DNA of 52,458 bases from a virus. Positions 3 through 52,364 of this stretch are shown piece by piece (the stretch's first letter is position 1; each line of letters begins with the position of its first letter). The translations under genes and the position numbers were made by a program. The notes beneath the pieces are model-generated. The model did no database searches. It was not told the origin of the DNA and saw nothing but the letters and a program-made list of their open reading frames with translations. The DNA lies in the IMG/VR virus record IMGVR_UViG_3300045283_000148, positions 1-52,458 of that record; one strand, given 5' to 3'.

Positions 3-152
3 GGAGCGGTCACGGTGGCCGCCGATAGCGGCGTAACGATCCGCAAGCATGTCAGCTTCTCGAGCGTCCTACTTGGACAATACGCGACCGCAACGGTGAA
101 GAAGACGGCGGCGAACGAATGGCGTTTATTTGGTCTGCTGTCGGCGGCGTGA
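3..152 (+). CDS. 3' end of a tail-fibre gene variant (partial, runs off contig start)
   Basis: This is an open frame with no start inside the window. It encodes 49 residues ending RLFGLLSAA. It is a near copy of the C-terminus of the fibre protein at 51369-52364, differing at about four residues, while the DNA before base 120 differs at roughly one base in five, mostly at third codon positions. That pattern means both versions have been under protein-level selection. From base 120 on the two are identical. Most likely this is the same gene from a co-assembled strain rather than a second fibre gene. Confidence 0.8.
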   Translation, partial: GAVTVAADSGVTIRKHVSFSSVLLGQYATATVKKTAANEWRLFGLLSAA

Positions 153-1847: not shown

Positions 1848-3002
1848 ATGCTTTCTGGCGTCATCGCAGCACAGCAGGCCGCAACGCCGAGAGGTGCGTT
1901 GTTCCCGCCGCTGTATCTCGACGACAGCGAAAACATCATTAGTCCATTTATCGCCTGGGCCACCGGCGGAGACAAGCTGCTGCGTCCAGGCGCCGTGTCC
2001 GACGCGGACGTGTTCTACGCACCGAGGCGTCCGCAAGTTTTGATGGCCGCATTTGTCGCCGACGCCGATGGCATACGCGCGCCCAGGCTTGTGCAAGCTC
2101 AGACATTGCATCCTGCACTCTACGTTGCCGTCGATGTCATTGGGTTGCCCGCCGTTGCGCTGCCCGGCATATTGCAAACTCATTTGCTGGTTGGCGACGA
2201 CAGCATATTCGCTTCGTTCATCTCCACGCACGGATCGCTGCGACCGGCTCTCTACAATGCCTTTGACGCGGTCTTCGCGCCGGCCCTGGGGGCCGCCCAA
2301 ACACTGCGGCCCAACTTGCACACTTCCTCTGACGTCTTCCAAGCACCGACTGTGCGTGTCGGCATAAGGCCGTTGCTCGTTTTCGACGCCGACGTTCACT
2401 ACACGAGTTTAATTGCGGGCACTGTGATACTTGCTACGTTCGATGGTATCGCAACCGAGGTGGCTTTAACGAACGGCAATTTGACTGCAACGCATACTAC
2501 TACGTCTTCAGCAACTGCTGGAGCACGCAGCACGTCCAACAAAACTACTGGAAAATTCTATTTCGAGTTCACAATGAGTTTGACTCATAACAGCAACGGC
2601 GACTCTGTTGGCCTCATTGCCTCGGGCGGGACTTACCCCGATATACTCAATCTCAGCGCTAATTGCATGGTGACTGAGAAAGGCGGAAATATCTTTTCCA
2701 ATGGTGGCTTTGCTGCCACATTCGGATCACCGGCGCCTGTTGGTACTGTCATCGGCGTGGCGGTCGATCTCGGCACACGTAAGGGCTGGTTCCGTAGAGG
2801 CTCTGGTAATTGGAACAATGATGCCGCACAAAATCCTGCGACGGGTGCAGGAGGTGTAACGGTACAAGCAACAGTAGCTTTTGCTCCTGTGGTTGCTCTT
2901 GGGGGAGGTAGTGCTGCGATCGGCGACTCGGTGACAGCCAACTTCGGCCAAACGGCTTATGCCAACGCCGCACCGGCAGGCTTCGGCAATTGGACGGCAT
3001 GA
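1848..3002 (+). CDS. Fibre-like protein with DxD repeats and a C-terminal SPRY-like domain
   Basis: A 384-residue protein. Residues up to about 200 carry repeats built around a D-A-D-x-F/Y or D-A-V-F-A-P motif (SDADVFYAP, FDAVFAPAL, SSDVFQAP), each following an L-x-P-x-L segment. The same repeat opens the protein at 39458-40948. The C-terminal half (from about 200) resembles a SPRY/concanavalin-like lectin domain: GKFYFEFTMS, GDSVGLIASGG, GVAVDLGTRKGWFRR, and an ending around GFGNW. It is probably a virion protein that binds a surface ligand. ATG 1848 is preferred, but a TTG at 1839 overlapping the previous stop is possible; neither has a clear ribosome-binding site. Confidence 0.7.
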   Translation: MLSGVIAAQQAATPRGALFPPLYLDDSENIISPFIAWATGGDKLLRPGAVSDADVFYAPRRPQVLMAAFVADADGIRAPRLVQAQTLHPALYVAVDVIGLPAVALPGILQTHLLVGDDSIFASFISTHGSLRPALYNAFDAVFAPALGAAQTLRPNLHTSSDVFQAPTVRVGIRPLLVFDADVHYTSLIAGTVILATFDGIATEVALTNGNLTATHTTTSSATAGARSTSNKTTGKFYFEFTMSLTHNSNGDSVGLIASGGTYPDILNLSANCMVTEKGGNIFSNGGFAATFGSPAPVGTVIGVAVDLGTRKGWFRRGSGNWNNDAAQNPATGAGGVTVQATVAFAPVVALGGGSAAIGDSVTANFGQTAYANAAPAGFGNWTA

Positions 3003-3595
3003 TGGATGCACCGAGCATGACCGCGAGCAGTAGCGGTGCTGGCCCACCGATCGCACCAGGGCGATCCTGCTCAAAATGCAGTTTATGCTGCAAGCTGCTG
3101 CACGTCATCGAGCTCGAGAAGCCCGCGAATCAGTGGTGTGGCCATTGCCGCCCCGGCGCCGGCGGCTGCACGATCTACGAGACGCGGCCACCGATATGTC
3201 GCAGCTATGCGTGCGGCTGGCTCATGACTGAGAACGTGGGACCGGAGTGGTTCCCACTGCTCTCGCATATGATTTTGTCGCTGGCCCCGTTTAATGGCGT
3301 CAACACCGTGACCGTCACCGTTGATCCGCGGTATCCATGGATATGGAAGGAATACCCGTACTACGCCCAACTGAAGCAGATGGCGGACCGCGGATTGCAA
3401 AACTTGAAATCAGCCGAGGACATTCTGCTCGTACATGTACGTTGCGATGGTCGGGTGTGGCTGATCGCCCCAAACGAGGACATTGAGATCACCAATGGCT
3501 CTTACGTCATCAAAGCTGGCGCTGATGGTCACTATGCGATCGAGCAATTCGCCACATCTGAGCAGGCGGCCGTGCGAGTCGCCGAGCTTATTTAA
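2999..3595 (+). CDS. CxxCxxCC metal-binding domain protein
   Basis: A 198-residue protein whose ATG overlaps the preceding stop. Near residue 30 it has CSKCSLCC, the CxxCxxCC signature of YkgJ/zinc-iron-chelating domain proteins, followed by CGHC, GGCTIYETRPPICR and CGW. The spacing and the TRPxxCR motif are typical of that family. The family is thought to bind Zn or Fe, but its biochemical role is not settled. It is the last gene of the rightward operon and ends 4 bases from the convergent gene at 3600. It could be a non-structural accessory gene carried at the end of the tail operon. Confidence 0.8.
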   Translation: MMDAPSMTASSSGAGPPIAPGRSCSKCSLCCKLLHVIELEKPANQWCGHCRPGAGGCTIYETRPPICRSYACGWLMTENVGPEWFPLLSHMILSLAPFNGVNTVTVTVDPRYPWIWKEYPYYAQLKQMADRGLQNLKSAEDILLVHVRCDGRVWLIAPNEDIEITNGSYVIKAGADGHYAIEQFATSEQAAVRVAELI

Positions 3596-4044: not shown

Positions 4045-4161
4045 CTACGTCCGCAGCGGCATCTGGCACGACGCCATCAGCAGCAGGATGATGAACGCCA
4101 CCACGCACGCCACGGCGAGGAACGCCCAGAGCTCGGCGCGCGAGGCGAACAGGTGCTTCAT
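4045..4161 (-). CDS. Small single-pass membrane protein
   Basis: A 38-residue protein with one strong hydrophobic segment (about residues 12-31, including AFLAVACVVAFIILLLMAS). Its ATG overlaps the stop of a five-codon reading frame (MTREP) that starts at 4175 inside the preceding junction sequence, so translation may be coupled through that mini-frame. A CQ pair after the segment resembles a lipobox only weakly. The function is unknown. Confidence 0.55.
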   Translation of the reverse strand: MKHLFASRAELWAFLAVACVVAFIILLLMASCQMPLRT

Positions 4162-4171
4162 GGCTCTCTGG

Positions 4172-4402
4172 TCATGGCTCGTGCTCCAGGGCGGCCACTA
4201 CTTCGCTCGCCCCAAATCCATCCCCGTTGGCAATCATGCGTCTTGCCGCCTCTCTGAGCGCCGCGCGCAGCCGCTCAACCATGTCTGCCATTTCCTTGCG
4301 ATCCCTCTCGCACAACGCCAACATTCGGCTGTCGTCCCGCAGCCGCTCAACCTCACGCATCGCATCCTGATACTCAGCACATTCTGAGCACGGCGATGTC
4401 AT
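4172..4402 (-). CDS. Small coiled-coil protein of the junction array
   Basis: A 76-residue protein starting MTSPCSECAEYQDAM and ending AALEHEP. It begins with a CSEC pair and continues as a heptad-rich helix with EVERLRDD and MVERLRAALREA. The segment MLALCERDRKEMADMVERL closely matches MLLLCEGDRKEMAAEIERL in the gene at 5025-5354, so the two are paralogues. The start overlaps the previous stop. The function is unknown; proteins of this style are common in early operons of alphaproteobacterial phages. Confidence 0.7.
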   Translation of the reverse strand: MTSPCSECAEYQDAMREVERLRDDSRMLALCERDRKEMADMVERLRAALREAARRMIANGDGFGASEVVAALEHEP

Positions 4403-4671
4403 GGCTTCGGCTCCAGGGCGGCGCGGACGGCCGCGAGGCGTTCGTTCAAGCCAATTCGCGCTTCCTCGCAGTCGGCGGTAACGGCCGTCCAAGCAAATTC
4501 ATCCATGAGGCGAAGCGCCGCTCGCAGCCGCGCGACCTCGGCGCGCAGCTCTCTGACCCTGGTATCATTCTCGGCGCGCACCTTATCCCTGTCGCTCTGC
4601 CGTTTGTGGCGCTGTTCTGCCAGCTTGGCGCGGCCATCGCGCAGATGGGCCTCGAGTTCCTTGCGGTTCAT
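4399..4671 (-). CDS. Coiled-coil protein of the junction array
   Basis: A 90-residue, strongly charged, all-helical protein: residues 1-60 are rich in K, R, E and Q with a VARLRAALRL heptad segment, and it ends AAVRAALEPKP. It shares the IERL/ARLRAAL pattern with its neighbours. The ATG lies within the upstream junction repeat and overlaps the previous stop by 4 bases. No enzymatic motif is present. The function is unknown. Confidence 0.7.
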   Translation of the reverse strand: MNRKELEAHLRDGRAKLAEQRHKRQSDRDKVRAENDTRVRELRAEVARLRAALRLMDEFAWTAVTADCEEARIGLNERLAAVRAALEPKP

Positions 4672-4850
4672 GGCCTGCGCTCCGGGGCGGCGCGGGCCTC
4701 ATCTAACTCTCTCCAAGCCTTCGACAGGTCTGCGGTAAGTGTTTGCACCTGCGCCCGCAGCCGATCGATCTCGGTGCGCAGCTTTTCGTTGTCGGCCGTT
4801 AATGCCTTGATTAGAACGCGATCATACGTTGCAACGTCCGGCTCGGTCAT
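4668..4850 (-). CDS. Coiled-coil protein of the junction array
   Basis: A 60-residue protein that is almost entirely one predicted coiled coil (ALTADNEKLRTEIDRLRAQ then VQTLTADLSKAWRELDEA), ending ARAAPERRP. The junction at its 3' end is a variant copy (CCGGAG in place of CTGGAG). Its start lies 28 bases inside the upstream gene instead of the usual 4-base overlap, because that junction copy is frame-shifted. Confidence 0.6.
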   Translation of the reverse strand: MTEPDVATYDRVLIKALTADNEKLRTEIDRLRAQVQTLTADLSKAWRELDEARAAPERRP

Positions 4851-5028
4851 GGCTTGCGCTCCTAGTAGCGTCGATCTTGGCGCGAACTACTTTGAAATAG
4901 CCGTCAAGGGCTGCCAACGAATTAAGGGCTTCCCATAGCTTGTTGTTTTCGGCAGTCAGCCGCTCGACCTCGGCCTCCAGCTTGTGCTTGTGAGAGACAA
5001 GGGCCTCGATTTCCAAGCTGTAGGTCAT
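4822..5028 (-). CDS. Coiled-coil protein with a frame-disrupted junction tail
   Basis: A 68-residue protein with a leucine-zipper-like segment (HKLEAEVERLTAENNKLWEAL, about residues 14-34, closely spaced leucines). The expected ending in the LE(x)KP frame is lost: the junction copy here reads CTAGGAGC instead of CTGGAGC. The protein therefore reads through in another frame (SASHDRAGRCNV) and overlaps the next gene by 29 bases. This looks like a recent insertion or mutation in an otherwise regular array. Confidence 0.6.
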   Translation of the reverse strand: MTYSLEIEALVSHKHKLEAEVERLTAENNKLWEALNSLAALDGYFKVVRAKIDATRSASHDRAGRCNV

Positions 5029-5354
5029 GGCTTCTGCTCCAGGGCGGTGTCGATCCTTGCAAGCGCCAACGTCTTTCCGTGAGCGTTGCCTTCGACTTGT
5101 TCACGAGCAAATACCAGCGCCGCGCGCAGCCGCGCGACCTCGGCCTCCGCTTCGTCGCGATGCCTCATAGCCAAATCGCAAGTTCCCTTGGCATAATGAG
5201 CTTCGTCTTGCAGCCGCTCGATCTCGGCGGCCATTTCCTTACGATCTCCTTCGCAGAGCAACAGCATTTTTCTGGCGTCTTTCAGCCGCTCGACCTCGGT
5301 GCGCGCTTCCGTTAACTCTAGTCGTAGTTCGCGTTCAATGGCGTCGTAGGTCAT
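5025..5354 (-). CDS. Coiled-coil protein of the junction array
   Basis: A 109-residue protein with repeated ERL heptads: TEVERLKDARKM, MAAEIERLQDEA and AEVARLRAALVFAREQVEG, ending TALEQKP. It is paralogous to the 4172-4402 protein over the CEGDRKEMAAEIERL segment. Its start overlaps the stop of the upstream gene within a junction copy. No catalytic motif is visible; an oligomerising or structural role is a guess. Confidence 0.7.
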   Translation of the reverse strand: MTYDAIERELRLELTEARTEVERLKDARKMLLLCEGDRKEMAAEIERLQDEAHYAKGTCDLAMRHRDEAEAEVARLRAALVFAREQVEGNAHGKTLALARIDTALEQKP

Positions 5355-5602
5355 GGCTTCGGCTCGCTGGTATTGTCGAACTCATTCAGTATTTCGCAGG
5401 CGTGTGCCGAGCGCATCCGAACATAGGAAATAGCTGCTTTCAGCCGCTCGATCTCCTTGCGCTGTCGCTCGATCTTCATTGGCCCGAAGTCGCCGCAGTC
5501 GCATGATGGGCAAATTGTTGGCCCGCCCATGGACAGGGGATAGTTGGTCAGTCCGCAGATGACGCACGGGCCGCCTTGCAACTGCCAGTCGATGTCGGTC
5601 AT
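5351..5602 (-). CDS. Small zinc-ribbon plus coiled-coil protein
   Basis: An 83-residue protein. Residues 12-36 hold two Cys pairs (CVIC and CPSCDC), suggesting a zinc ribbon. Residues 40-62 form a charged helix with the recurring KEIERLKAAI motif, and the C-terminus is NTSEPKP. It combines the helical element of its neighbours with a metal-binding head. The ATG at 5602 lies in a degenerate junction copy; an in-frame ATG at 5659 lies inside the upstream gene and is not favoured. Confidence 0.65.
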   Translation of the reverse strand: MTDIDWQLQGGPCVICGLTNYPLSMGGPTICPSCDCGDFGPMKIERQRKEIERLKAAISYVRMRSAHACEILNEFDNTSEPKP

Positions 5603-5724
5603 GGCTTGAGTTCCCTCAGAGCACGCAGAATGTCTCTTAGCGTGTCTGAAATCGCCCACGCCCAGTACGTGAAGCCGGTGCCAAAAATCAGCACCGCGAC
5701 AATCAGCAGTTGGATGTCAGTCAT
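5599..5724 (-). CDS. Small single-pass membrane protein
   Basis: A 41-residue protein starting MTDIQLLIVAVLIFGTGFTY, with one membrane segment from residue 5 to about 25 and a basic amphipathic tail ending RELKP. The tail and stop fall on a degenerate junction copy that overlaps the next start (ATGA). It is shorter than common gene-calling cut-offs. The function is unknown. Confidence 0.6.
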   Translation of the reverse strand: MTDIQLLIVAVLIFGTGFTYWAWAISDTLRDILRALRELKP

Positions 5725-5726
5725 GG

Positions 5727-5843
5727 CTAGGCCGGTTCTTTCTCTGGCACTTTCACCGGCTCGCGTGGTGCTGGCACTGGTTGTTGCTCTGGCACCGCAG
5801 GAATGACGACGATACGGCGGATGGGCTCGCCGATCTCAGACAT
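5727..5843 (-). CDS. Small proline-rich hypothetical protein
   Basis: A 38-residue protein: MSEIGEPIRRIVVIP followed by a Pro/Val/Glu-rich tail (VPAPREPVKVPEKEPA). GGAG sits 7 bases before the ATG. It resembles short proteins often seen in Rhizobiales phages and prophages that begin with a GEPIRR-V-IP segment; this is recalled similarity, not a search result. It ends 2 bases before the next start and does not use the junction repeat. Confidence 0.55.
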   Translation of the reverse strand: MSEIGEPIRRIVVIPAVPEQQPVPAPREPVKVPEKEPA

Positions 5844-5856
5844 AGATTTGCTCCAG

Positions 5857-6120
5857 TCACGCATGTCCCGTTATGTCAGGTTGCCCTTCAAATCTTTTAA
5901 TTTGTTCGCGAAGCATCGTCACCACGTCTTGCCGGTTAGCATTGCTCACGTAATTGCAGCGGCCCTCGTGGCCCTCGAACGGGAAGACCAGCAGGATGAA
6001 GCCATTCTTCTTTGGCCGCTCCTTGCCGTTCAAGATGTCATCAATGCCGTGCGCCAACTGGTTCATCACTTCATGCAGCCTCGGCTCAATCGGTGCATCG
6101 CCTAAACGCTCAGCAGCCAT
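5857..6120 (-). CDS. Conserved hypothetical phage protein
   Basis: An 87-residue protein with a GGAGG 5 bases before ATG 6120. The core LVFPFEGHEGRCNYVSNANR, then DVVTMLREQIKRFEGQ, resembles a small conserved domain found in early regions of alphaproteobacterial phages, of unknown role. The start overlaps the stop of the upstream gene. The clean Shine-Dalgarno and the lack of the junction repeat suggest that this and the 5727 gene form an older block within the array. Confidence 0.65.
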   Translation of the reverse strand: MAAERLGDAPIEPRLHEVMNQLAHGIDDILNGKERPKKNGFILLVFPFEGHEGRCNYVSNANRQDVVTMLREQIKRFEGQPDITGHA

Positions 6121-6568
6121 GTGTCCCTCCAAACCACAACGTGTTCAGTTCATCCACGATCTGCTCGGCCCGATAGCCCCAAGCCCGCAAAAACCGGGTC
6201 GGTTTTACGTGTTGAGCACGGTAGCCAAATTCGTGCTCGATCACCGAGTCTCCCCAGAACTCGACCTTGCCTAAGACAATCCCAGCCCTGCATTCGCACC
6301 ACCGACCTAGCATTTCCGCTACACTGTTGATGGCGTCGGCGCTGCCGCGCATGGCATCGTCCACGGTCTTGTAGACGTTAAGGCCGCGCCCGTTCTCGAC
6401 TGTCGGTATGCCGTCCGATTGAGCAGCTTGCCATGGGTTCCAGATGATGTCGCGATACTGGAATGACTCGATGACGAGGGATGGGAATTCGTAAGTCCAG
6501 AACCGCACGCCTTTGAGCGGGCCAATGATGACCTCGTCGCCAAAGTGAATGTCGAGGTAGTTGGTCAT
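6110..6568 (-). CDS. Hypothetical protein
   Basis: A 152-residue soluble protein. N-terminal segments (FGDEVIIGPLKGVRFWTYEF) look beta-rich. The C-terminal part contains GKVEFWGDSVIEHEFGYRAQ, a pattern seen in small phage proteins beginning with a GxVxxWGxVxEHExGYRA module. No catalytic residues are recognised. It is coupled at both ends: its ATG is in a junction copy, and its stop is 8 bases past the next ATG. Confidence 0.6.
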   Translation of the reverse strand: MTNYLDIHFGDEVIIGPLKGVRFWTYEFPSLVIESFQYRDIIWNPWQAAQSDGIPTVENGRGLNVYKTVDDAMRGSADAINSVAEMLGRWCECRAGIVLGKVEFWGDSVIEHEFGYRAQHVKPTRFLRAWGYRAEQIVDELNTLWFGGTHGC

Positions 6569-6744
6569 GGCTTCCGCTCCAGGGCGGCGCGGGCAATGGC
6601 GCGCATGTCCTCGGCGGGCCAGCCGTCTTCGGGTGTCTCGTATCGCTTAACGATTTGTTCCAGCACCGCCGTAAGCCGTTCGTTGTCGTCGCGCAGGCGA
6701 GTATTTTCCTCCTGCAACCATTCATATGCAGCGGTGCTGATCAT
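6565..6744 (-). CDS. Small coiled-coil protein of the junction array
   Basis: A 59-residue protein just below common length cut-offs. It starts MISTAAYEWLQEENTRLRDD, with heptads NTRLRDDNERLTAVLEQIV, and ends ARAALERKP. Full junction copies sit at both ends, giving ATGA overlaps with both neighbours. It is a clear member of the array with the same helix-plus-tail plan. Confidence 0.65.
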   Translation of the reverse strand: MISTAAYEWLQEENTRLRDDNERLTAVLEQIVKRYETPEDGWPAEDMRAIARAALERKP

Positions 6745-7037
6745 GATTTCGGCTCCAGGGCGGCGCGGTTGGCTTGAAGCGCCGCTAATACCGCGCCATG
6801 CTGCGATGGGTCAGCATTTCTGACTGCGCTTTCGATGACCAGTAAATAGCGGTCTATACCGCTGGCCGCCGCTCGCAGCCGCTCGCATTCCATATGCAAA
6901 TTGGTTGCCACCTCAATGCGACCGTGCAGCGCCGTTGTCAGCCGCTCGATCTCGGCGGCGGCCTCCCCGCAACAGGTGGCCCATGGAGTCACCATGTCCG
7001 CCCGCTTCTTTAGCCGTTCCACAAGCTGTCTGGTCAT
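6741..7037 (-). CDS. Coiled-coil protein of the junction array
   Basis: A 98-residue protein. MTRQLVERLKKRAD opens the helix, followed by CCGEAAAEIERLTTAL and MECERLRAAASG, and an ending RAALEPKS. The plan (VERLxKRA, then EAAxEIERL) is common in small early proteins of temperate phages. The start overlaps the methyltransferase stop by 4 bases within a junction copy. Confidence 0.7.
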   Translation of the reverse strand: MTRQLVERLKKRADMVTPWATCCGEAAAEIERLTTALHGRIEVATNLHMECERLRAAASGIDRYLLVIESAVRNADPSQHGAVLAALQANRAALEPKS

Positions 7038-7978
7038 GACTTCGGCTCCAGGGCGGCGCTCATGATTGCCCGTCCGATGATCTCGGGGATCTGGGGCACC
7101 ACTGCATTCCTTAACGCTCTGAGTTTGTTGGCTCGGTTGGGGACGCCTCTTGCGACTCGTCCTTCAAATCGCACCAGTCCACCGGATAGCCCATCAACCA
7201 ACTCACCCATTGCGGGTTCAGTGCCCCATTGAATTCTTCCGAACTCACCATCGTTCGCAATTTGGCGCGCGATCCTGCCCCACCCCATTTGCAGAGGGCC
7301 GCCCCGCCGGTGTCCGTCACCGCTGTTGGCGTCGGCCACATCCGCACCGCATCCGCGAGGCACACCCCGTTCGATCGGATGCGGGTTTCCGCCGTTTGAC
7401 TGTGGATGTTCTGCGCGCTTGTCGTTGCAGTGGGCCACGATCCAAACCCTGTCTCGTCGGTGAGGCGCACCAACGGCGGAAGCTGGTATGCAGTGCCACT
7501 CCGCATCAAACCCGAGCGCGGCCAGGTCTCCGAGAACTCGGTCAAGTCCCCGTCCAAGCAAAGCTGCGACGTTCTCCACGATGACGTAGCGCGGTCGAAC
7601 CTCGCCAATAATTCGGGCGTACTCCGACCATAGGCCGCTGCGCTCGCCGCCAATGCCTGCGCCCTTTCCGGCGACGCTGATGTCTTGGCAGGGAAAGCCG
7701 CCTGCGATAACATCAATACAGTCCGCCCTAATCCTTTGCCGCCCTGCGCATAGTTGTTCTTGCGCAGGCTCGCATCGCTTGTCGGCGTTGGAAACAAGCC
7801 ATCCTTCGTCCACGGCGAGCTCTCGGACATCTCCGTAAACAGGGACATCTGGCCAGTGCTTTCGCAGCACGGCTTGGCAATAGGGGTCGATTTCGACAAA
7901 GGCGACGGTTCGCATTCCGGCTCGTTCGAGGCCGAGGCTGAAGCCGCCAATTCCTGAGAAGAGATCGAGGACATTCAT
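7034..7978 (-). CDS. dcm: DNA cytosine-5 methyltransferase
   Basis: It transfers a methyl group from S-adenosylmethionine to cytosine C5, probably to protect phage DNA from host restriction. From ATG 7978 it is 314 residues with the family motifs in order: DLFSGIGGF (5-13, SAM binding), GGFPCQDIS with catalytic C97 (93-101), ENVAAL (135-140), APHRRDRVWIV (171-181) and NAVVPQIPEIIGRAI near the end. The C-terminus AALEPKS and the stop form one copy of the array's junction repeat. An in-frame ATG at 8068 would add 30 residues that read across another junction copy, so 7978 is preferred. A second long frame lies inside (7111-7974). Confidence 0.9.
   Translation of the reverse strand: MNVLDLFSGIGGFSLGLERAGMRTVAFVEIDPYCQAVLRKHWPDVPVYGDVRELAVDEGWLVSNADKRCEPAQEQLCAGRQRIRADCIDVIAGGFPCQDISVAGKGAGIGGERSGLWSEYARIIGEVRPRYVIVENVAALLGRGLDRVLGDLAALGFDAEWHCIPASAVGAPHRRDRVWIVAHCNDKRAEHPQSNGGNPHPIERGVPRGCGADVADANSGDGHRRGGPLQMGWGRIARQIANDGEFGRIQWGTEPAMGELVDGLSGGLVRFEGRVARGVPNRANKLRALRNAVVPQIPEIIGRAIMSAALEPKS
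7111..7974 (-). CDS. Long alternative-frame ORF nested in the methyltransferase gene (possible dual coding)
   Basis: 287 codons are open in a different frame on the same strand. The ATG lies 4 bases after the methyltransferase ATG (ATGAATG), so both could share one ribosome site. The product has non-random structure: three related segments (LFPTPTSDAS, SWPTATTSAQ, MWPTPTAVTD), the stretch SSWRTSQLCLDGDLTEF with ETWPRSGLMRSG, and LNPQWVSWLMGYPVDW near the end. I recall similar polypeptides annotated beside or inside other phage cytosine methyltransferase genes. Since the methyltransferase is conserved, its other frame would look conserved by shadow alone. Whether it is translated is therefore open. 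Confidence 0.45.
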   Translation of the reverse strand: MSSISSQELAASASASNEPECEPSPLSKSTPIAKPCCESTGQMSLFTEMSESSPWTKDGLFPTPTSDASLRKNNYAQGGKGLGRTVLMLSQAAFPAKTSASPERAQALAASAAAYGRSTPELLARFDRATSSWRTSQLCLDGDLTEFSETWPRSGLMRSGTAYQLPPLVRLTDETGFGSWPTATTSAQNIHSQTAETRIRSNGVCLADAVRMWPTPTAVTDTGGAALCKWGGAGSRAKLRTMVSSEEFNGALNPQWVSWLMGYPVDWCDLKDESQEASPTEPTNSER

Positions 7979-8101
7979 TCCGGCTCTCTGGTCATGGCTT
8001 GCGCTCCAGAGCGGCCCATTTTTGTCCTTAAGTTGCTGATATTCATGCTCTTGCCTTAATGGGGTCATATGGCCTAAGCCTATGATTTATATAGTTTAAC
8101 T
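7979..8101 (-). other. Leader of the methyltransferase/array block with a vestigial junction copy
   Basis: This 123-base stretch lies between integrase and methyltransferase. It holds a junction-repeat copy (7994-8018) followed by a six-codon frame MTREPE (ATG 7997) whose stop is next to the methyltransferase ATG. The same junction plus a MTREP mini-frame occurs at the far end of the array (4159-4197). The body of the gene that should precede this junction is missing, so it looks like the scar of a lost cassette. The upstream 8069-8101 is AT-rich (TATATAA) and could hold a promoter, but no confident -35/-10 pair was found. Confidence 0.45.
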
Positions 8102-9270: not shown

Positions 9271-9597
9271 CTATCGCTCTCTCGCGTGCACTATGCTGCC
9301 GTTGAAACGACGCCAACCGCGGAAGGACGATTTTCGCTTGATCCCGAGATCTTTACGTCGCACACGTCGTGATTTTGAAATAGCAGGCAGATCTCGGATA
9401 GCAGTTTTGCGGCTATGGCAGGATCGGCAACAGCACACGCAATTTTCAAGCGAACCATTCCCGCCGAGTGCGCAGGGAATTCGGTGGTCATATTCTATTC
9501 CTCCGGTTGCCAATGGTGCAGTACAGACTTCACAATGCCCGCTTGACCTTTCCCAAGCGGCTTCTTTTACTTTGTTGGAAAATTCGTTGCGTTTCAT
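9271..9597 (-). CDS. HNH endonuclease
   Basis: A 108-residue protein from ATG 9597 (MKRNEFSNKVKEAAW). It has a compact HNH fold: CEVC (zinc pair), IEYDHRIPCALGG (the DH of HNH), SLENCV, and CRSCHSRKTA (second zinc pair and final H). It resembles stand-alone HNH nucleases that either act in genome packaging or move as selfish genes. It is far from the terminase here, so mobility or a recombination role is more likely. The 114 bases upstream (9598-9711) hold no clear gene. An upstream TTG start at 9639 is possible but less likely. Confidence 0.85.
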   Translation of the reverse strand: MKRNEFSNKVKEAAWERSSGHCEVCTAPLATGGIEYDHRIPCALGGNGSLENCVCCCRSCHSRKTAIRDLPAISKSRRVRRKDLGIKRKSSFRGWRRFNGSIVHARER

Positions 9598-9711
9598 CGT
9601 TGGTTCATTTGGGTCGGCATCCGCGCCTGTTTTACGCAATCGCCATGGACCGCGCCTTCCGGCTGCAGTTGCTAAAGCTGCAATTCAAAAGTTTGACTCG
9701 TGCAGGCGGGC

Positions 9712-10164: not shown

Positions 10165-10535
10165 GCCAACTCGCCCAATTCCTTGAAGCCGACAAGAATG
10201 TTCGGTGGGCGCGGGAACGCGCCGCCGGTCCAGTGCCAGAGATGCAGAACCTTGGAATAATTGTTGATGTAATCGGCTTTCGGTGGATGAAACTGCACCA
10301 CACAGTCATCCTCTGCCCAGAACAAGTCCTTGACAAAACACATCTCTTGCCAATTCGGGATGCGGCGGCGGATCGATACGCTGACGTGCTCCCACTTGCC
10401 GTCACTAGCGATGATAGTCAGTCTCTCTCCACATGGTCCCGGCAATTCAAATGCACCGAACGGCTCGCCCGGTCGGCTAGCATAGTCGCCCTTACGAATG
10501 CGGTACTCTTCCAGGTTGCTCTTGATCTGGATCAT
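10161..10535 (-). CDS. Hypothetical protein of the recombination operon
   Basis: A 124-residue protein from ATG 10535, which overlaps the Bet stop (ATGA). It contains ERLTIIASDGKWEHVSVS and CFVKDLFWAEDDCVVQFHPP, ending LVGFKELGELA. It resembles a family often encoded next to bet or DUF1367 in Rhizobiales phages, recalled as DUF7694-like, but I am not certain of the family. No catalytic motif is assigned. Confidence 0.7.
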   Translation of the reverse strand: MIQIKSNLEEYRIRKGDYASRPGEPFGAFELPGPCGERLTIIASDGKWEHVSVSIRRRIPNWQEMCFVKDLFWAEDDCVVQFHPPKADYINNYSKVLHLWHWTGGAFPRPPNILVGFKELGELA

Positions 10536-11452
10536 TCCTGCGCCTCGATCCGCTTGTAATGCTCGTCCCATAGCGCCTTTACCCGCTTTCGATCCGGCGG
10601 AAAGACATTCGGCAGGTTCGGACCGACCAGAGTTTTCTGCGCATCGAATAGCGAGGCCATATCCTCGCAGGCGGCGTAAGCGCCTTCCACGTCCTTGAGG
10701 AATTGCGCACCGTCGAAGACATCTTCGGCGGTTGCACGCAGAATTCCCCGCACGTCCTCAGCCGTAGGCAACTCGCTGTCTTCCGACCACTCGATCGATT
10801 GGCCATCGTCCAAGCCGGCCTCGAACTCGTGCACGAGATCAGCCTCGGTCGGTTGTGCCTTCCTCGCAGCCGGTGGCGGCGGCGGGCCGTCGTCCTTCGG
10901 CGTGACATCGCGCATGCCGTTGGTGCCTATGCGCTCGGCCTCGTCGGGATCTACAATGCCGGAAAACCCGAAGGCATATCGTGCGGCTTGGATCAGCGCT
11001 TTGTGCCGCAGCATCCGGCGCGGCCAGCGCTTCCATGGCTCGGTCGGCCGATAGCATTCGGCTAGGTATTCGGTGACGGTCGTCGGCTTGCTGCGATCCT
11101 TGCGCCAGATGCGTGCGGTGATCGATGCCACCTTGCCATCGCTATCGAGATGGTCGTCGAACTCGATGCCGTCACAGTTGGGTTGCCGATTGACAAGACT
11201 CGCCCATCCATCAACGGATACGATCGGCTGGATGCCACCGCCGGGCGCCGGAAAGGCGTAGATCTCCTTGGTGAGCGGGTTCAGGCCGTATTCGTTTGCG
11301 ACCACGAGGAAGGCGGCAAACTGCTCACGCGAGGCATTCTTGGGGACAACAGTTGCCCGCAAGGTTGCCTCAAAAGCAGCCGCCTCCATCCCGTACTTCG
11401 TGGCCATGGTGACCACTACGGATCGGCGCGGTAGTTCAACTGGCTGATTCAT
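10532..11452 (-). CDS. bet: Bet/RecT-family single-strand annealing protein
   Basis: It anneals complementary single-stranded DNA during phage recombination. The protein is 306 residues from ATG 11452, which overlaps the HNH stop. The conserved region is about residues 15-190: VVPKNASREQFAAFLVVANEYGLNP, then IYAFPAPGGGIQPIVSVDGW and WPRRMLRHKALIQAARYAFG. These are hallmarks of the phage Bet family. The C-terminal third is acidic and variable, as is usual. No partner Exo-type nuclease was recognised nearby; the upstream 299-residue protein might fill a partner role. Confidence 0.9.
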   Translation of the reverse strand: MNQPVELPRRSVVVTMATKYGMEAAAFEATLRATVVPKNASREQFAAFLVVANEYGLNPLTKEIYAFPAPGGGIQPIVSVDGWASLVNRQPNCDGIEFDDHLDSDGKVASITARIWRKDRSKPTTVTEYLAECYRPTEPWKRWPRRMLRHKALIQAARYAFGFSGIVDPDEAERIGTNGMRDVTPKDDGPPPPPAARKAQPTEADLVHEFEAGLDDGQSIEWSEDSELPTAEDVRGILRATAEDVFDGAQFLKDVEGAYAACEDMASLFDAQKTLVGPNLPNVFPPDRKRVKALWDEHYKRIEAQE

Positions 11453-12096
11453 GCCGCCCTCTGTTCCTTGACCACGCGACATCCCGGCAGTGAGATCTTC
11501 TGCTTAGCCGCCGCATCAGCGATGGTCTGCATGCATGCGAGAACTTCGGGGTGATTAACTAACTCCGCAATCATTGTGGAATGTTGCCAAGTGTCCTCAT
11601 AAATGGTGTGTTCTATACATCCACGTGAGACATTGAATTGTTTGCTGAGATCGGCAAATAATTTTCTAATCGGTCTCTTTTCTAATTTTGCGCAGGAGTA
11701 TGCTCGCCGGATCAGAAATACCTCGGCCGCAGATAACACAGCCATGCCGTGTCGGCTTCCTTGAGGCCTCGTTCCATGGATAATCTTATCGGCTTCGTTT
11801 TCTTTTCGCGTTTTCCAAGCCAAATTCAGATAGTGATTATTGGTTTTGCTCCCGTCCAGATGCGCCGTGAAGTGATCTAGCGATGGTCGCGGTCCATGAA
11901 ATGCAGCGCAAACGAGGCGATGAACCTTCGATAGCTTTTGACCGCCATGCCATCGGCCAAGCCAAAGACCAATTGTAATATAGCCGTCTTTGCTCTGGTA
12001 ACTGCTCATAAGACGATCACCATGACGGACGCGACCGTGTGATGAAACGTCATAGCCCGGAAATTCAGCAATAGGCCGCCATTGTTCGTCGATCAT
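11449..12096 (-). CDS. NUMOD4/HNH homing endonuclease with a hitchhiked neighbour tail
   Basis: A 215-residue protein. It opens with a NUMOD4-like segment (WRPIAEFPGYDVSSHGRVR), followed by an HNH core (VHRLVCAAFHGPRP, TAHLDGSKTNNHYLNL with WKTRKENEADKI) and a helix-turn-helix-like region. The last ~45 residues (NHPEVLACMQTIADAAAK, then SLPGCRVVK and AA at the end) match the C-terminus of the upstream 299-residue protein (THPEIRETAQRIADASAK, ELPGTRIIK, AA). So the endonuclease is fused to a diverged second copy of its neighbour's tail. Base composition is visibly more AT-rich than its neighbours. Both ends are coupled by ATGA overlaps. Confidence 0.85.
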   Translation of the reverse strand: MIDEQWRPIAEFPGYDVSSHGRVRHGDRLMSSYQSKDGYITIGLWLGRWHGGQKLSKVHRLVCAAFHGPRPSLDHFTAHLDGSKTNNHYLNLAWKTRKENEADKIIHGTRPQGSRHGMAVLSAAEVFLIRRAYSCAKLEKRPIRKLFADLSKQFNVSRGCIEHTIYEDTWQHSTMIAELVNHPEVLACMQTIADAAAKQKISLPGCRVVKEQRAA

Positions 12097-15081: not shown

Positions 15082-15555
15082 ATGAATCACGCGACGGTTT
15101 GGCTTCCCGAACACGTCGTGCTCGCAATCGATCTTCACGCTCGGCATTTCTCCGCGCAGGTGGCGGCCGATGAATTTGCCCGACTTACCGGCAAGGCAAC
15201 CACGCGCAACGCCATGATCGGAAAATGGAACCGGCTTGGATTGCGAGCTGATGACCAGCCGGTGATCAGGAAGGTGCGTGCTCCCGAAAACAAGAGGCCC
15301 GTCCGCATGGTGCCGTCGCCACCGCTGTCATCGCCACAACCGCCGCTAGCCGAAGCCGAACCGCAGTTATCGCCGCGGCCGTGCGACATCATCGGCCTGC
15401 GTTTGCACGACCAGTGCCGCTGGGTCATGTCCGATCCGCGCCGGTTCCCGGTGTACTACTGCGGCGGCGAGCGCGAGTTTCCCGGTGATGAGGCGCCGCA
15501 CATGTACTGCATCCATCACGCACGGCGAGCCTTTGCGGGAAAGGGGCGGGCATGA
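15082..15555 (+). CDS. gcrA: GcrA-like cell-cycle regulator
   Basis: A 157-residue protein with the GcrA plan. The N-terminal helical DNA-binding region (WLPEHVVLAIDLHARHFSAQ, then TTRNAMIGKWNRLGL, about residues 8-55) matches the GcrA pattern ending TRNAVIGKxxRLGL. A Pro-rich linker (about 75-100) follows, and then the C-terminal Cys/His part (CRWVMSDP, YYCGGE, MYCIHHARRAF). In alphaproteobacteria GcrA binds RNA polymerase sigma70 and activates promoters carrying methylated adenine sites. The phage copy may redirect host transcription. It is coupled by ATGA to the adenine methyltransferase gene. Confidence 0.85.
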   Translation: MNHATVWLPEHVVLAIDLHARHFSAQVAADEFARLTGKATTRNAMIGKWNRLGLRADDQPVIRKVRAPENKRPVRMVPSPPLSSPQPPLAEAEPQLSPRPCDIIGLRLHDQCRWVMSDPRRFPVYYCGGEREFPGDEAPHMYCIHHARRAFAGKGRA

Positions 15556-16232
15556 GTCCGTTTGGCGATCTCCCGCGTGGGCATTACGGGGCGATCCTGG
15601 CCGACCCGCCGTGGCGATTTGAGGCTTGGTCGGAATTCAAAGAACTGAAAAATGGCGACAAAACTCGTGCGGTCGAGCGCTATTACGATGTGATGACGAC
15701 GCGCAAAATCTGTGCGCTAGCGGTGGATGACTTGGCCGCATCAGATTGTGTGCTGTTCTTATGGGCGTGCTGGCCGCAATTGCCGGATGCGTTAGCGGTA
15801 ATTGATGCTTGGGGCTTCAAATTCAAGACCGCGGCTTTCGTTTGGACAAAAGCTCACGCCGGCCAACTAGAACTTTTTGAGCAGGCGCTACCAGCACAAG
15901 TGGGAATGGGTTATTGGACGCGCGCTAATAGCGAGCCTTGCTTGCTGGCGACACGCGGCCGGCCAAAGCGCATTAGCGCTGACGTTCGCCAAGCGATCAT
16001 CGAGCCTCGGCGTGAACATTCCCGCAAGCCGGACGGCATTCACGAGCGCATCGAGCGGCTGGTAGCCGGTCCTTACCTTGAACTGTTCGCGCGCCAGCAA
16101 CGTCCGGGCTGGGACGTATGGGGCAATGAAACCGAGAAGTTCAAGCCAATAGCTATGCCCGATTCAGCGCAAGAATCTTGGGCCGAGATGTGGTCGCGGC
16201 CGTTCGACTTCTCGCAGGAGCCGACGTCATGA
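15552..16232 (+). CDS. MT-A70 family DNA adenine methyltransferase
   Basis: A 226-residue protein with the catalytic DPPW motif at residues 18-21 ([12 protein letters not shown]), then [42 protein letters not shown], and [15 protein letters not shown]. These are standard features of phage MT-A70 N6-adenine methyltransferases. It may protect phage DNA from restriction, or mark sites read by the adjacent GcrA-like protein. It is not of the CcrM class, so GANTC specificity cannot be assumed. Its start overlaps the GcrA-like stop and its stop overlaps the next start. Confidence 0.9.
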
Positions 16233-29460: not shown

Positions 29461-29545
29461 CGAGCTGCTCCATCAGTTCGAAGTCAAGTGGCGGCTGACG
29501 TTCCAAGCGTCGGCCGCTGCGCATTATAGCGGGGTTCCGCTGTGA
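29461..29545 (+). pseudogene. Possible 3' remnant of a gene displaced by the HNH insertion
   Basis: Beginning at the HNH start, 27 codons are open on the plus strand ([20 protein letters not shown], then AHYSGVPL) and end at a TGA that overlaps the fibre GTG (GTGA). Such overlaps in this genome normally join two real genes, so this may be the surviving end of the gene that once preceded the fibre. The frame continues backwards into the HNH gene only by chance. Confidence 0.35.
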
Positions 29546-31029
29546 CAGCGATCATCCCGTTCAACGTGTGGGTCGACCGCTTCACCGACGCGGAGTTTTC
29601 GCTGTTCCGCACGCGCATGCGTGGCATCCAGTTCGTCGGCCCAAATATCTTGCGGCGCTGGGACCAGGCGGTGGCGGTCAACCTCGTCGACCTCGACGAC
29701 CCGATCATACCGTTGTTCAAGGATGCGTTGATTCGAGAGGGTATCCTCCTGCCCGCGCGCGCTGAGTTGGTGTTCTCTACTGATGGCACCAGCCCGACGC
29801 CTCCGGTTGAGGGTGCGGGCGCGATGGGGCCGCAAGGTCCGGCAGGTCCGCCTGGGCCGCAAGGTCCACAAGGTCCGGCCGGTGCAGATGGCGCACAAGG
29901 CGCGACAGGGCTGCAAGGTGGGCAAGGTCCGAAGGGTGATCCCGGTGTACAGGGCACTGCTGGCACACCCGGCACGACCGGATCGCAAGGGCCGAAGGGT
30001 GACAAGGGCGACACCGGCAGCACCGGACCAGCGGGCGCTGATGGTGCGCAAGGCTTGCAGGGGCCGAGTGGACCGCAAGGCCCGCAGGGGCCGCAGGGGC
30101 CGCAGGGGCCGACGGGACCAGCAGGCATCGCCAGTGGTCCACCACAAGGCCGCCTGACATTGCAGACTGCCACGCCGGTGATGACGTCCACGCAGAGTGC
30201 GAAAACGACGATACTGTATTCGCCTTATTGCGGCAGTCAGGTGCCGATTTACGACGGCGCCAACATGGTTATGACGACGTTCGCCGAATTGAGCGTCGCC
30301 ACCACCGACACAACCAAGAGCCCCGCCGCGATCGGAGCATCCAAGGTCAATGACTGGTTCATCTGGAATGATGCCGGAGCCATCCGTCTTGGCCACGGCC
30401 CGGACTGGACTAGCGACACAACGCGGTCGGCCGCTACCGCGCTCACAATCGTCAATGGCATTCTGCTTAACAACGTCTCGATCACCAACGGCCCGGCGGC
30501 ACAGCGTGGCACCTATGTCGGCACCACACGCAGCAATGCGGGCTCAACACTGGACTGGATTTATGGAACGGTGGCGGCGGCTCCGGTTGCGGGATTGTTT
30601 GGTGTCTGGAATATGTACAATCGAGTTTATGTATCGAGCTTAGTGGGCGATCTTGCTGACAGTTGGACGTATAGTTTGGCTGCGGTGCGGGCAGCCAATG
30701 CTAAAACTACGATGCGACATAGTTTCGTTAGTGGTGTGGCTGAAGACGCTTTTGAAGCTGTTTATACTTCTCATGGGACAGGTGCAACCGTAGTGATTGT
30801 GGGTGTTTGTTATGATGTAACCAATGCATTTAGTGGAGTAACCGGTTTTGCATTCGGGCTTGGAACGGCGTCTGTGTCACTGATGGGTGTCCATATTACT
30901 ACTGCTTTAGGGTTTCATTTTTTTCAGGCTGGAGAGTCGGCTGGTGCTGCGACCAGTGCAAATTTATTCGGAGATAACGCTGATGCTACACTCTATAAAA
31001 CAGGTATCGTTTTCAAGGGGTGGATGTGA
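29542..31029 (+). CDS. Collagen-like tail fibre protein
   Basis: A 495-residue protein starting at GTG 29542. The N-terminal ~95 residues ([40 protein letters not shown]) probably anchor it to the virion. About 96-200 is a Gly-x-y collagen-like run ([19 protein letters not shown] and similar), forming a rigid trimeric shaft. The remaining ~295 residues are a beta-rich head likely to bind the host surface. From about 30600 the codon usage becomes more AT-rich, suggesting the tip was acquired separately. Confidence 0.85.
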
Positions 31030-44413: not shown

Positions 44414-47835
<3,422 letters not shown>

Positions 47836-47839
<4 letters not shown>

Positions 47840-51368: not shown

Positions 51369-52364
51369 ATGTTGCTCTATCGCACATCAGGCGCATGGGG
51401 CGCGGGCACAGGTGCCAACCTGACGCCTGCGCAGGTCGATGGCAACTTCTATGATGTCTCGCAGCGGGTGCAGTTCCTCGAGCTGCATCCGTCCGAGCCG
51501 GTGCTGATCACATCGTTCTCCGCGACCGGTGATCAGCTCTACATCCACATGTCGGACGGCACCATCAACGGCCCGGTCACGTTGCCGGTGGTGCGCTGGT
51601 TCTTCCGCGGGCCGTGGGCGCCGTCGACCAGTTACGCCAAAGATGACGTTGTCGTTGGTCCCGACAGCGCAGTCTATATCGTCACGTTCAACCACACTTC
51701 GTCGGCTTCCACATTTGATCCGCATGCCAACGACGGCGCGGGCCACAGTTATTATTCGCTGTTGCTGAGCGTGCCCGCGGCGACCCTGCCAACGGGCGGA
51801 GGTGCGGGTTTTGTTTTAACTAAAAACACGACTGCTAACTACGATGTGGTGTGGGCGCTTCCTGGTGCGCCGGCCGGTGGCAGCACCGGACAGGTACTGC
51901 GAAAGAACACCTCGATTGACGGCGACGCGAGTTGGCGCACGTTGGCGTTTAGCGACCTCGGCGGCATGACCATTGCTGCTACGCCAGCCGACTGGGACTA
52001 CTTGCGATGGAACGCAGCCACTAGCCGCTGGATCAATCAACAACCCCCGATGCTGCACGTTCTGTCGGCGTCGTCATGGGTGCCAGCGGTTGGCGATGAT
52101 GGTGCGTTCATGGTGCTGACCAATGGTACGACAGCCACAACTATCACCATTCCCGCCGATGCCACCACAGCGTTCCCGGTCGGGACCGAGTTGCACATCC
52201 ACCAGGACGGTACTGGCGCGGTCACAGTGGCAGCCGATAGCGGTGTAACGATGCGCAAGCACGCTAATTTTTCGAATGTTCTGCTCGGGCAATATGCGAC
52301 CGCCACCGTGAAAAAAACGGCAGCTAATGAGTGGCGTTTATTTGGTCTGCTGTCGGCGGCGTGA
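51369..52364 (+). CDS. Tail fibre/tip protein
   Basis: A 331-residue protein. The N-terminus MLLYRTSGAWGAGTGANLTP, with AQVDGNFYDVSQRV, is a common virion-attachment start. Residues about 55-125 (WFFRGPWAPSTSYAKDDVVV) resemble a carbohydrate-binding 5/12-like module (W-x-P-xxxYxxxDxV). The C-terminus (WVPAVGDDGAFMVLTNGTTA, TVAADSGVTMRKHANFSNVL, RLFGLLSAA) is a typical fibre-tip beta domain. Its 3' end has a strain variant at 3-152, showing this region diversifies. Confidence 0.8.
   Translation: MLLYRTSGAWGAGTGANLTPAQVDGNFYDVSQRVQFLELHPSEPVLITSFSATGDQLYIHMSDGTINGPVTLPVVRWFFRGPWAPSTSYAKDDVVVGPDSAVYIVTFNHTSSASTFDPHANDGAGHSYYSLLLSVPAATLPTGGGAGFVLTKNTTANYDVVWALPGAPAGGSTGQVLRKNTSIDGDASWRTLAFSDLGGMTIAATPADWDYLRWNAATSRWINQQPPMLHVLSASSWVPAVGDDGAFMVLTNGTTATTITIPADATTAFPVGTELHIHQDGTGAVTVAADSGVTMRKHANFSNVLLGQYATATVKKTAANEWRLFGLLSAA

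What the first reader, a model, noticed from the sequence alone, without database searches (positions are those of the whole stretch)
4159..8068. Gene array joined by a repeated junction that encodes one protein's end and the next gene's ribosome site
About eleven copies of a roughly 25-bp sequence sit at successive gene boundaries. Each encodes AALE(P/R)KP-stop, provides GGAG about 8 bases before the next ATG, and overlaps stop and start. It links genes that are otherwise unrelated (coiled coils, a zinc ribbon, a hypothetical protein, even the cytosine methyltransferase). Such a module lets any gene be inserted, lost or swapped by recombination at the repeats while translation stays coupled: a cassette system without a dedicated recombinase. 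One copy has lost its frame (4848) and one has lost its gene (about 8000), as expected from active shuffling. Lambdoid phages are known to have short conserved boundary sequences, but a repeat that is also C-terminus plus ribosome site looks different.
Basis: partly seen in the sequence, partly recalled or inferred. Interest (0 to 1): 0.78.

Follow-up and report, generated by a model that had tools for sequence, protein, structure and literature searches.

The report
Phage gene cassettes joined by repeats
In this phage and in dozens of other mostly soil and rhizosphere phages, small genes are strung together by one repeated 25–30-letter DNA sequence that ends one protein and starts the next, and comparing phages shows genes gained, lost and swapped exactly at that repeat, so it behaves like a plug-in socket for genes.

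Summary
Eight strong copies of GCCGCCCTGGAGCNNAAGYC|ATGAC, plus three or four decayed ones, lie at successive 4-nt stop/start (ATGA) overlaps between 4172 and 8015 (minus strand) and nowhere else in the window. The core occurs in 47 IMG/VR contigs. A control without the Shine-Dalgarno sequence occurs in one. Bacterial genomes (257 Gb) give one match, apparently chance.

Contigs identical up to the repeat are unrelated beyond it, or the reverse. Five independent comparisons show whole-cassette indels (167, 167, 220, 299, 612 bp) whose aligned flanks overlap by 26–37 nt: the repeat. Alignment ends are sevenfold enriched there. Loci collected through a neighbouring gene, not the repeat, show zero to several cassettes between fixed flanks. 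None of 79 methyltransferase homologues carries the ALExKP tail, so paralogy fails.

Best reading: a gene-boundary repeat that keeps translation coupled and is a crossover site, probably for the phages' own annealing proteins (RecT or ERF). Gain, loss and swapping are shown by comparison; enzyme and coupling are inferred. It is a new, elaborate variant of phage boundary sequences.

The parts
7992..8015 (-). Junction repeat, first in transcription order, no gene before it (35-nt shared array end 7982-8016)
7034..7978 (-). C5-cytosine methyltransferase cassette (PF00145); last residues SAALEPKS come from the repeat
7034..7057 (-). Junction repeat between methyltransferase and next gene
6741..7037 (-). 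Coiled-coil cassette, 98 aa, ends RAALEPKS; contains an EIERL patch at 6953
6741..6764 (-). Junction repeat
6565..6744 (-). Coiled-coil cassette, 59 aa, ends RAALERKP; weakly similar over its length to an array gene of L121/L101
6565..6588 (-). Junction repeat
6110..6568 (-). 152-aa protein of unknown family; begins at a repeat, ends without the tail
5857..6132 (-). 91-aa protein; relatives at 59-67% in the array phages L031, L147, L150
5727..5864 (-). 45-aa small gene
5599..5724 (-). 41-aa membrane-type small gene, ends RELKP at a partial repeat (5599-5613)
5351..5602 (-). Cys-rich cassette; N-terminal half 80% identical to an L153 cassette up to KEIERL, C-terminal half unrelated; ends at a partial repeat (5351-5365)
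5025..5354 (-). Coiled-coil cassette, 109 aa, ends TALEQKP; EIERL/EVERL patches at 5225 and 5297
5025..5048 (-). Junction repeat
4822..5028 (-). Coiled-coil cassette whose ending copy has lost frame
4847..4870 (-). Junction repeat with 1-nt deletion: peptide frame lost, GGAG-N8-ATGA kept
4668..4850 (-). Coiled-coil cassette, 60 aa, ends RAAPERRP
4668..4691 (-). Junction repeat
4399..4671 (-). Coiled-coil cassette, 90 aa, ends RAALEPKP; N-terminal half related to array genes of L021/L127
4399..4422 (-). Junction repeat
4172..4402 (-). Coiled-coil cassette, 76 aa, ends VAALEHEP; C-terminal half 71% identical to an L250 gene from IERLRAAL onward, N-terminal half unrelated
4172..4195 (-). Last junction repeat, followed by the empty unit MTREP* (35-nt shared array end 4162-4196)
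4045..4161 (-). 38-aa membrane-type small gene following the last empty unit
   Evidence: read from sequence
10532..11482 (-). RecT-family annealing protein; candidate driver of the exchange (inferred), not part of the array

Best explanation
The repeat is a gene-boundary 'socket'. Read as code it ends one protein with -ALExKP; read as an mRNA signal it supplies GGAG at the right distance from the next ATG; and it overlaps stop and start, so the next gene can be translated by coupling. Because every junction carries the same 25-30 nt, homologous exchange between any two copies, within one phage or between co-infecting phages, adds, deletes or swaps whole genes in frame without breaking the operon. 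Shown here: the repeat, its recurrence in many phages, and gene gain, loss and swapping exactly at it. Inferred: that the exchange is homologous and driven by the phages' annealing proteins (RecT in the window, RecT or ERF, often with NinB, in other array phages), and that coupling occurs. A second shared patch inside the coiled-coil genes (EIERLR codons) serves in the same way for exchanging gene halves.
For: 47 viral contigs against 1 for a control lacking the Shine-Dalgarno sequence; 171 sites, 0 in reversed or opposite-strand controls. One-sided flank similarity: 22 upstream-only and 58 downstream-only pairs against 9 two-sided, with base-by-base examples. Alignment ends at the repeat 90 of 384 against 12.4 expected, maximum 26 in 2000 simulations. 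Break fraction 0.42 at repeat junctions, 0.26 at other tandem junctions, 0.09 in mid-gene. Whole-cassette indels with the 26-37-nt repeat as the overlap. Independent sample through the anchor gene shows zero to several extra cassettes between fixed flanks, repeat present at the anchor in 9 of 14 loci. Methyltransferase tail absent from all 79 homologues. CTG 24/24, GAG 24/24, AAG 23/24 in tails against backgrounds 0.38, 0.56, 0.64. Copies within a contig more alike at two of three variable positions tested. RecT, ERF or NinB in most larger array contigs.
Against: No crossover was observed directly; all comparisons are between metagenomic contigs, where assembly at repeats can err. About five independent exact indels only. 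Other tandem junctions also break more often than mid-gene, so part of the effect is the general tendency of phage mosaics to join at gene boundaries. No close relative of the window itself. Annealing proteins are common in phages, so their presence is weak support.
Confidence: 0.8

Rival explanations
1. Selection only: joining is random (illegitimate), and the repeat survives because genes that end with a good ribosome site and an ATGA overlap are kept. The repeat is an optimised translation junction, not a crossover site.
For: Non-repeat junctions also break more than mid-gene (0.26 against 0.09); CTGGAG and the spacing fit a Shine-Dalgarno sequence; indels with little or no overlap also occur in array regions.
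Against: Overlaps of 26-37 nt at the exact indels and within-contig similarity of copies fit homologous exchange; independent convergence on 20 or more identical bases, including bases outside the ribosome site, is unlikely.
Confidence: 0.13
2. Tandem duplication of one coiled-coil gene family: the repeat is simply the inherited end and start of the ancestral gene, and arrays grow and shrink by unequal crossing-over inside the family.
For: Many cassettes are related coiled coils with EIERLR codons; two window cassettes share 88 nt at 74%; L104 against L128 differ by a 440-bp segment flanked by a 123-nt repeat.
Against: The methyltransferase, Cys-rich proteins, membrane proteins and others carry the same junction; the methyltransferase tail is absent from 79 homologues; one gene is cut short at the repeat in L099/L126 relative to L031. 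Probably true of the origin of the repeat but not sufficient.
Confidence: 0.07
3. The C-terminal peptide ALExKP is the selected feature (for example a tag for stability or binding), and the DNA repeat follows from it.
For: L, E, K and P are nearly invariant while x varies.
Against: The copy at 4848 keeps GGAG-N8-ATGA but has lost the peptide frame, and empty units keep the DNA without a real protein. Synonymous codons are hardly used at L, E and K.
Confidence: 0.05

Closest known systems
Short conserved boundary sequences of mosaic phages (lambdoid phages; mycobacteriophage Island3 gene 67/68, PMC3029335)
   Same: Short identical sequences at gene boundaries at which gene content changes; in Island3 the shared ~50 bp encode the same 18 C-terminal residues of neighbouring genes.
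   Different: Island3 is a single event; here one sequence recurs at many junctions of one array and in dozens of phages, and it also supplies the ribosome site and the stop/start overlap.
Start-associated sequences (SAS/ESAS) of cluster K mycobacteriophages, PMC3203893
   Same: Short repeat with a Shine-Dalgarno core before the starts of many unrelated non-structural genes, in one orientation, nearly absent from host genomes.
   Different: Different sequence (GGGATAGGAGCCC), in the paper proposed to act in translation initiation; in the passages read it is not described as a C-terminal coding unit or as a breakpoint.
PeSLs of T4-type phages (Arbiol 2010; Comeau 2014; cited in PMC4503421)
   Same: Repeated small regulatory element that mediates shuffling of genes between related phages.
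   Different: PeSLs are promoter plus stem-loop elements (from their names and the citing text; full papers not held); here there is no intergenic space and the repeat is coding.
Lambda ninR chain of interlinked genes (Kroger and Hobom 1982; title seen in the reference list of PMC8022706)
   Same: Small accessory genes chained by ATGA overlaps in the early region beside recombination genes such as ninB.
   Different: Lambda's nin junctions are not copies of one sequence.
Integron cassette arrays (own knowledge)
   Same: Variable string of small genes between fixed flanks, units bounded by a common repeat.
   Different: No dedicated cassette integrase is tied to the array: the window's integrase family occurs without it; the repeat is coding.

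Membership tests
Phage mosaic boundary sequences | Short conserved sequence at gene or module boundaries | tested here: met
Phage mosaic boundary sequences | Similarity between related phages switches at that sequence | tested here: met
Phage mosaic boundary sequences | Exchange occurs by homologous recombination there | not testable with these tools
   26-37-nt overlaps are consistent; needs an experiment
Start-associated sequences (cluster K) | Repeat with Shine-Dalgarno core just before starts of unrelated genes, one orientation | tested here: met
Start-associated sequences (cluster K) | 13-bp sequence GGGATAGGAGCCC | tested here: not met
   consensus here is GCCCTGGAGCNNAAGCC
Start-associated sequences (cluster K) | Associated 17-bp inverted repeats in about half the sites (ESAS) | not tested
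   not examined
PeSL elements | Intergenic promoter plus stem-loop | tested here: not met
   junctions overlap by 4 nt, no intergenic space; a promoter within the coding repeat was not tested
Lambda ninR-type interlinked gene chain | Small accessory genes chained by ATGA overlaps near recombination genes | tested here: met
Integron | Dedicated cassette integrase (IntI) linked to the array | tested here: not met
   21 loci with the window's integrase family lack the array; genes beside other arrays are NinB, ERF and HNH types
Integron | attC sites that fold as hairpins | not tested
   folding of the repeat was not examined

The most novel reading that the evidence does not exclude
A phage 'integron without an integrase': a translation-coupled cassette array in which one 25-30-nt repeat serves as protein terminus, ribosome site and crossover site, with a second coding patch (EIERLR) that lets gene halves recombine, so that soil phages continually reassemble small accessory proteins combinatorially using their own annealing proteins.
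Probability: 0.4. Interest if true: 0.82.

Novelty: new variant of a known kind. Interest (0 to 1): 0.72.

Why it matters
[quoted passage not shown] Here is a natural system with many copies of one boundary sequence and several whole-gene indels, in phages that encode RecT or ERF proteins, so the question can be tested directly. The repeat can also be used to find exchangeable accessory genes: whatever sits between two copies is probably cargo.

Tried and rejected
Integrase relatives as a route to related arrays: 21 loci, none with the array. The 152-aa protein at 6110-6568 and the 109-aa coiled coil at 5025-5354: no relatives found with these searches. Chance codon usage of GC-rich genomes: rejected by the control without the Shine-Dalgarno sequence (1 against 47 contigs) and the reversed control. 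Paralogy including the methyltransferase: rejected. Bacterial genomes as a source of arrays: only one exact match in 257 Gb, in no array. Lambda nin junctions as copies of one sequence: not so. The full texts of Arbiol 2010 and Comeau 2014 were not held. The host of the window was not determined; among its closest terminases in named phages are those of Xanthomonas and Rhizobium phages, which is only a hint.
Full report
WHAT IS THERE. The window is an IMG/VR virus record of 52,458 bases. On its minus strand, from 8016 down to 4162, small genes follow one another, most with 4-nt ATGA overlaps. Eight of the junctions carry GCCGCCCTGGAGCNNAAGYC|ATGAC almost unchanged; three or four more carry decayed forms. 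A weight matrix built from the twelve sites finds eleven of them at scores of 23 or more and nothing else in the window above 19.5. Read in frame the repeat ends the upstream protein with about -ALExK(P/S); read as mRNA it gives GGAG 8 nt before the next ATG. The genes joined include coiled coils, a Cys-rich protein, a 152-aa protein of unknown family and a C5-methyltransferase (PF00145). At both ends of the array stand nearly empty units, MTREPE* (7993) and MTREP* (4173), within 35 nt shared at 91%.

IT IS NOT CHANCE AND IT IS A PHAGE FEATURE. The core GCCCTGGAGCNNAAGCCATGAC occurs in 47 viral contigs; the same pattern with GGAG changed to GCAG occurs in one. In 257 Gb of bacterial and archaeal genomes it occurs once, and there it joins no array. 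In the 100 sequences collected (99 loci and the window) there are 171 sites in 0.91 Mb, none in the reversed sequence and none on the opposite strand; 36 of the sequences have two to eight copies. A second, overlapping scan gave 55 contigs. The amino-acid tail alone does not explain it: in loci gathered without using the repeat's DNA, plus the window, Leu is CTG in 24 of 24 tails, Glu GAG in 24 of 24 and Lys AAG in 23 of 24 (backgrounds 0.38, 0.56, 0.64), while the third bases of Ala and Pro vary. Shared ancestry of the copies also contributes to this.

GENE CONTENT CHANGES EXACTLY AT THE REPEAT. Comparing 136 distinct sites by 90-nt flanks, 22 pairs are alike only upstream, 58 only downstream and 9 on both sides (sites with identical flanks were collapsed, which lowers 'both'). 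Typical cases are 100% identical up to ATGA and random beyond, or the reverse (L021/L127, L117/L145, L109/L134, L145/L149). Over all alignments, 90 of 384 distinct alignment ends fall within -30 to +15 of a repeat ATG; 12.4 are expected and the largest of 2000 simulations is 26. Left ends pile up at -40 to -10 and right ends at 0 to +10, as they must if the repeat itself is shared. The mean share of aligned partners whose similarity breaks is 0.42 at repeat junctions, 0.26 at other tandem junctions and 0.09 in mid-gene.

WHOLE CASSETTES COME AND GO. L145 (same contig as L240) and L106 (same contig as L242) are identical for 1051 nt up to the repeat. L106 then has one more 299-bp cassette, and both continue with the same anchor gene; the two flanking alignments overlap by 28 nt, which is the repeat. 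The same signature is seen for 167 bp (L138 against L100), 167 bp (L110/L144 against L122), 220 bp (L110/L144 against L149) and 612 bp, three cassettes (L110/L144 against L121). Of 20 distinct pure indels in array regions 8 are centred on a repeat, where 5% of positions would be expected; of 21 outside the arrays none has an overlap of 15 nt or more. Because L110 and L144 give the same comparisons, this is about five independent events. A sample of loci collected through the anchor gene, not through the repeat, shows the same picture: behind fixed flanks (NinB-like and HNH genes in several) stand zero to several extra cassettes that differ from phage to phage, and the repeat stands at the anchor's start in 9 of the 14 loci that show it.

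PARALOGY DOES NOT EXPLAIN IT. Of 79 methyltransferase homologues none carries the ALExKP tail; similarity runs to about ...IIGRAIM and each homologue then ends in its own residues. Another gene (MTLFAPRYKRY...) is 197 aa in L031 but is cut to 56 aa ending in ARRALEPKP in L099 and L126.

A SECOND PATCH. Many cassettes are coiled coils with the same EIERLR codons. Alignment ends are enriched there too (right ends 11 against 1.4 expected, left ends 12 against 1.4). The window shows it: the C-terminal half of gene 4172-4402 matches L250 from IERLRAAL onward at 71%, and the N-terminal half of gene 5351-5602 matches L153 up to KEIERL at 80%. So halves of genes appear to be exchanged as well as whole genes.

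HOW IT MOST LIKELY WORKS. Shown by comparison: the repeat, its recurrence, and gain, loss and swapping at it. Inferred: that the exchange is homologous. This is supported by the 26-37-nt overlaps and by copies within one contig being more alike than copies in different contigs at two of three variable positions. Inferred with less support: that the phages' own annealing proteins do it. The window has RecT; among 25 records tested, the window included, 5 have RecT, 11 have ERF, none has both, and 10 have NinB, in several cases just upstream of the array. Such genes are common in phages, so this is only consistent. Translational coupling is expected from the overlap and the Shine-Dalgarno sequence by established knowledge; it was not measured.

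COMPARISON WITH WHAT IS KNOWN. The nearest precedent is one event in mycobacteriophage Island3, explained by ~50 bp encoding the same 18 C-terminal residues of neighbouring genes (PMC3029335). [quoted passage not shown] Start-associated sequences of cluster K phages (PMC3203893) share the ribosome-site position and the association with unrelated genes but differ in sequence, and the passages read do not describe them as exchange points. PeSLs of T4-type phages mediate shuffling but are promoter and stem-loop elements (cited in PMC4503421). Lambda's nin genes form a similar chain, but their junctions are not copies of one sequence. I therefore file this as a new variant of phage boundary sequences: the array form, the triple use of the sequence and the documented cassette indels are what is new to my knowledge; the literature search was limited to the open library.

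LIMITS. Almost all comparisons rest on metagenomic contigs, and assembly at repeats can err. No close relative of the window was found. The host is unknown. Sites collected by exact DNA patterns exaggerate the conservation of the core, so statements on codons use the anchor-gene sample and the window only.

Noticed in passing
window 15-152 and 51369-52364 (C-terminal end): The first small ORF of the window and the end of the last ORF encode nearly the same ~45 residues (…SGVTxRKHxxFSxVLLGQYATATVKKTAANEWRLFGLLSAA): a duplicated fibre-like end, or a sign of how the record was cut.
   Followed up: no
window 15552-16232: MT-A70 methyltransferase 90% identical to one in the array phage L031 and 68% to one in L019, while most other window genes have no or only distant matches in those loci: recent mosaic transfer.
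   Followed up: partly
L008-L010, L012, L013, L016-L018, L023, L025, L029, L030, L033, L034, L036-L039, L043: A second group of phages carries single copies (…RAALERKP*ATGA), often behind a shared …PSAPVERDERAAFE…WQARAALERKP C-terminal region on proteins with different N-terminal parts; L013 against L039 shows the same one-sided switch. The nearest named phage is Pseudomonas phage PPpW-3.
   Followed up: partly
L150 against L147: A 571-bp indel with a 101-nt overlap that does not contain the junction repeat: another repeat-mediated gain or loss.
   Followed up: no
window 2999-3595: 198-aa Cys-rich protein (CSKCSLCC...) without a Pfam match at E 0.01; a distant relative in L252.
   Followed up: no
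window 9271-9639: HNH endonuclease whose relatives (46-48% identity) also stand beside the arrays of L110, L124, L143, L152 and L241, so the window shares neighbourhood genes with the other array phages.
   Followed up: partly
window 29542-31029 and 44414-47839: Collagen-like GPQGP repeats in one ORF and long Q/L-rich (LQLQ, QQLQ) repeats in a 1141-aa tape-measure-like ORF.
   Followed up: no
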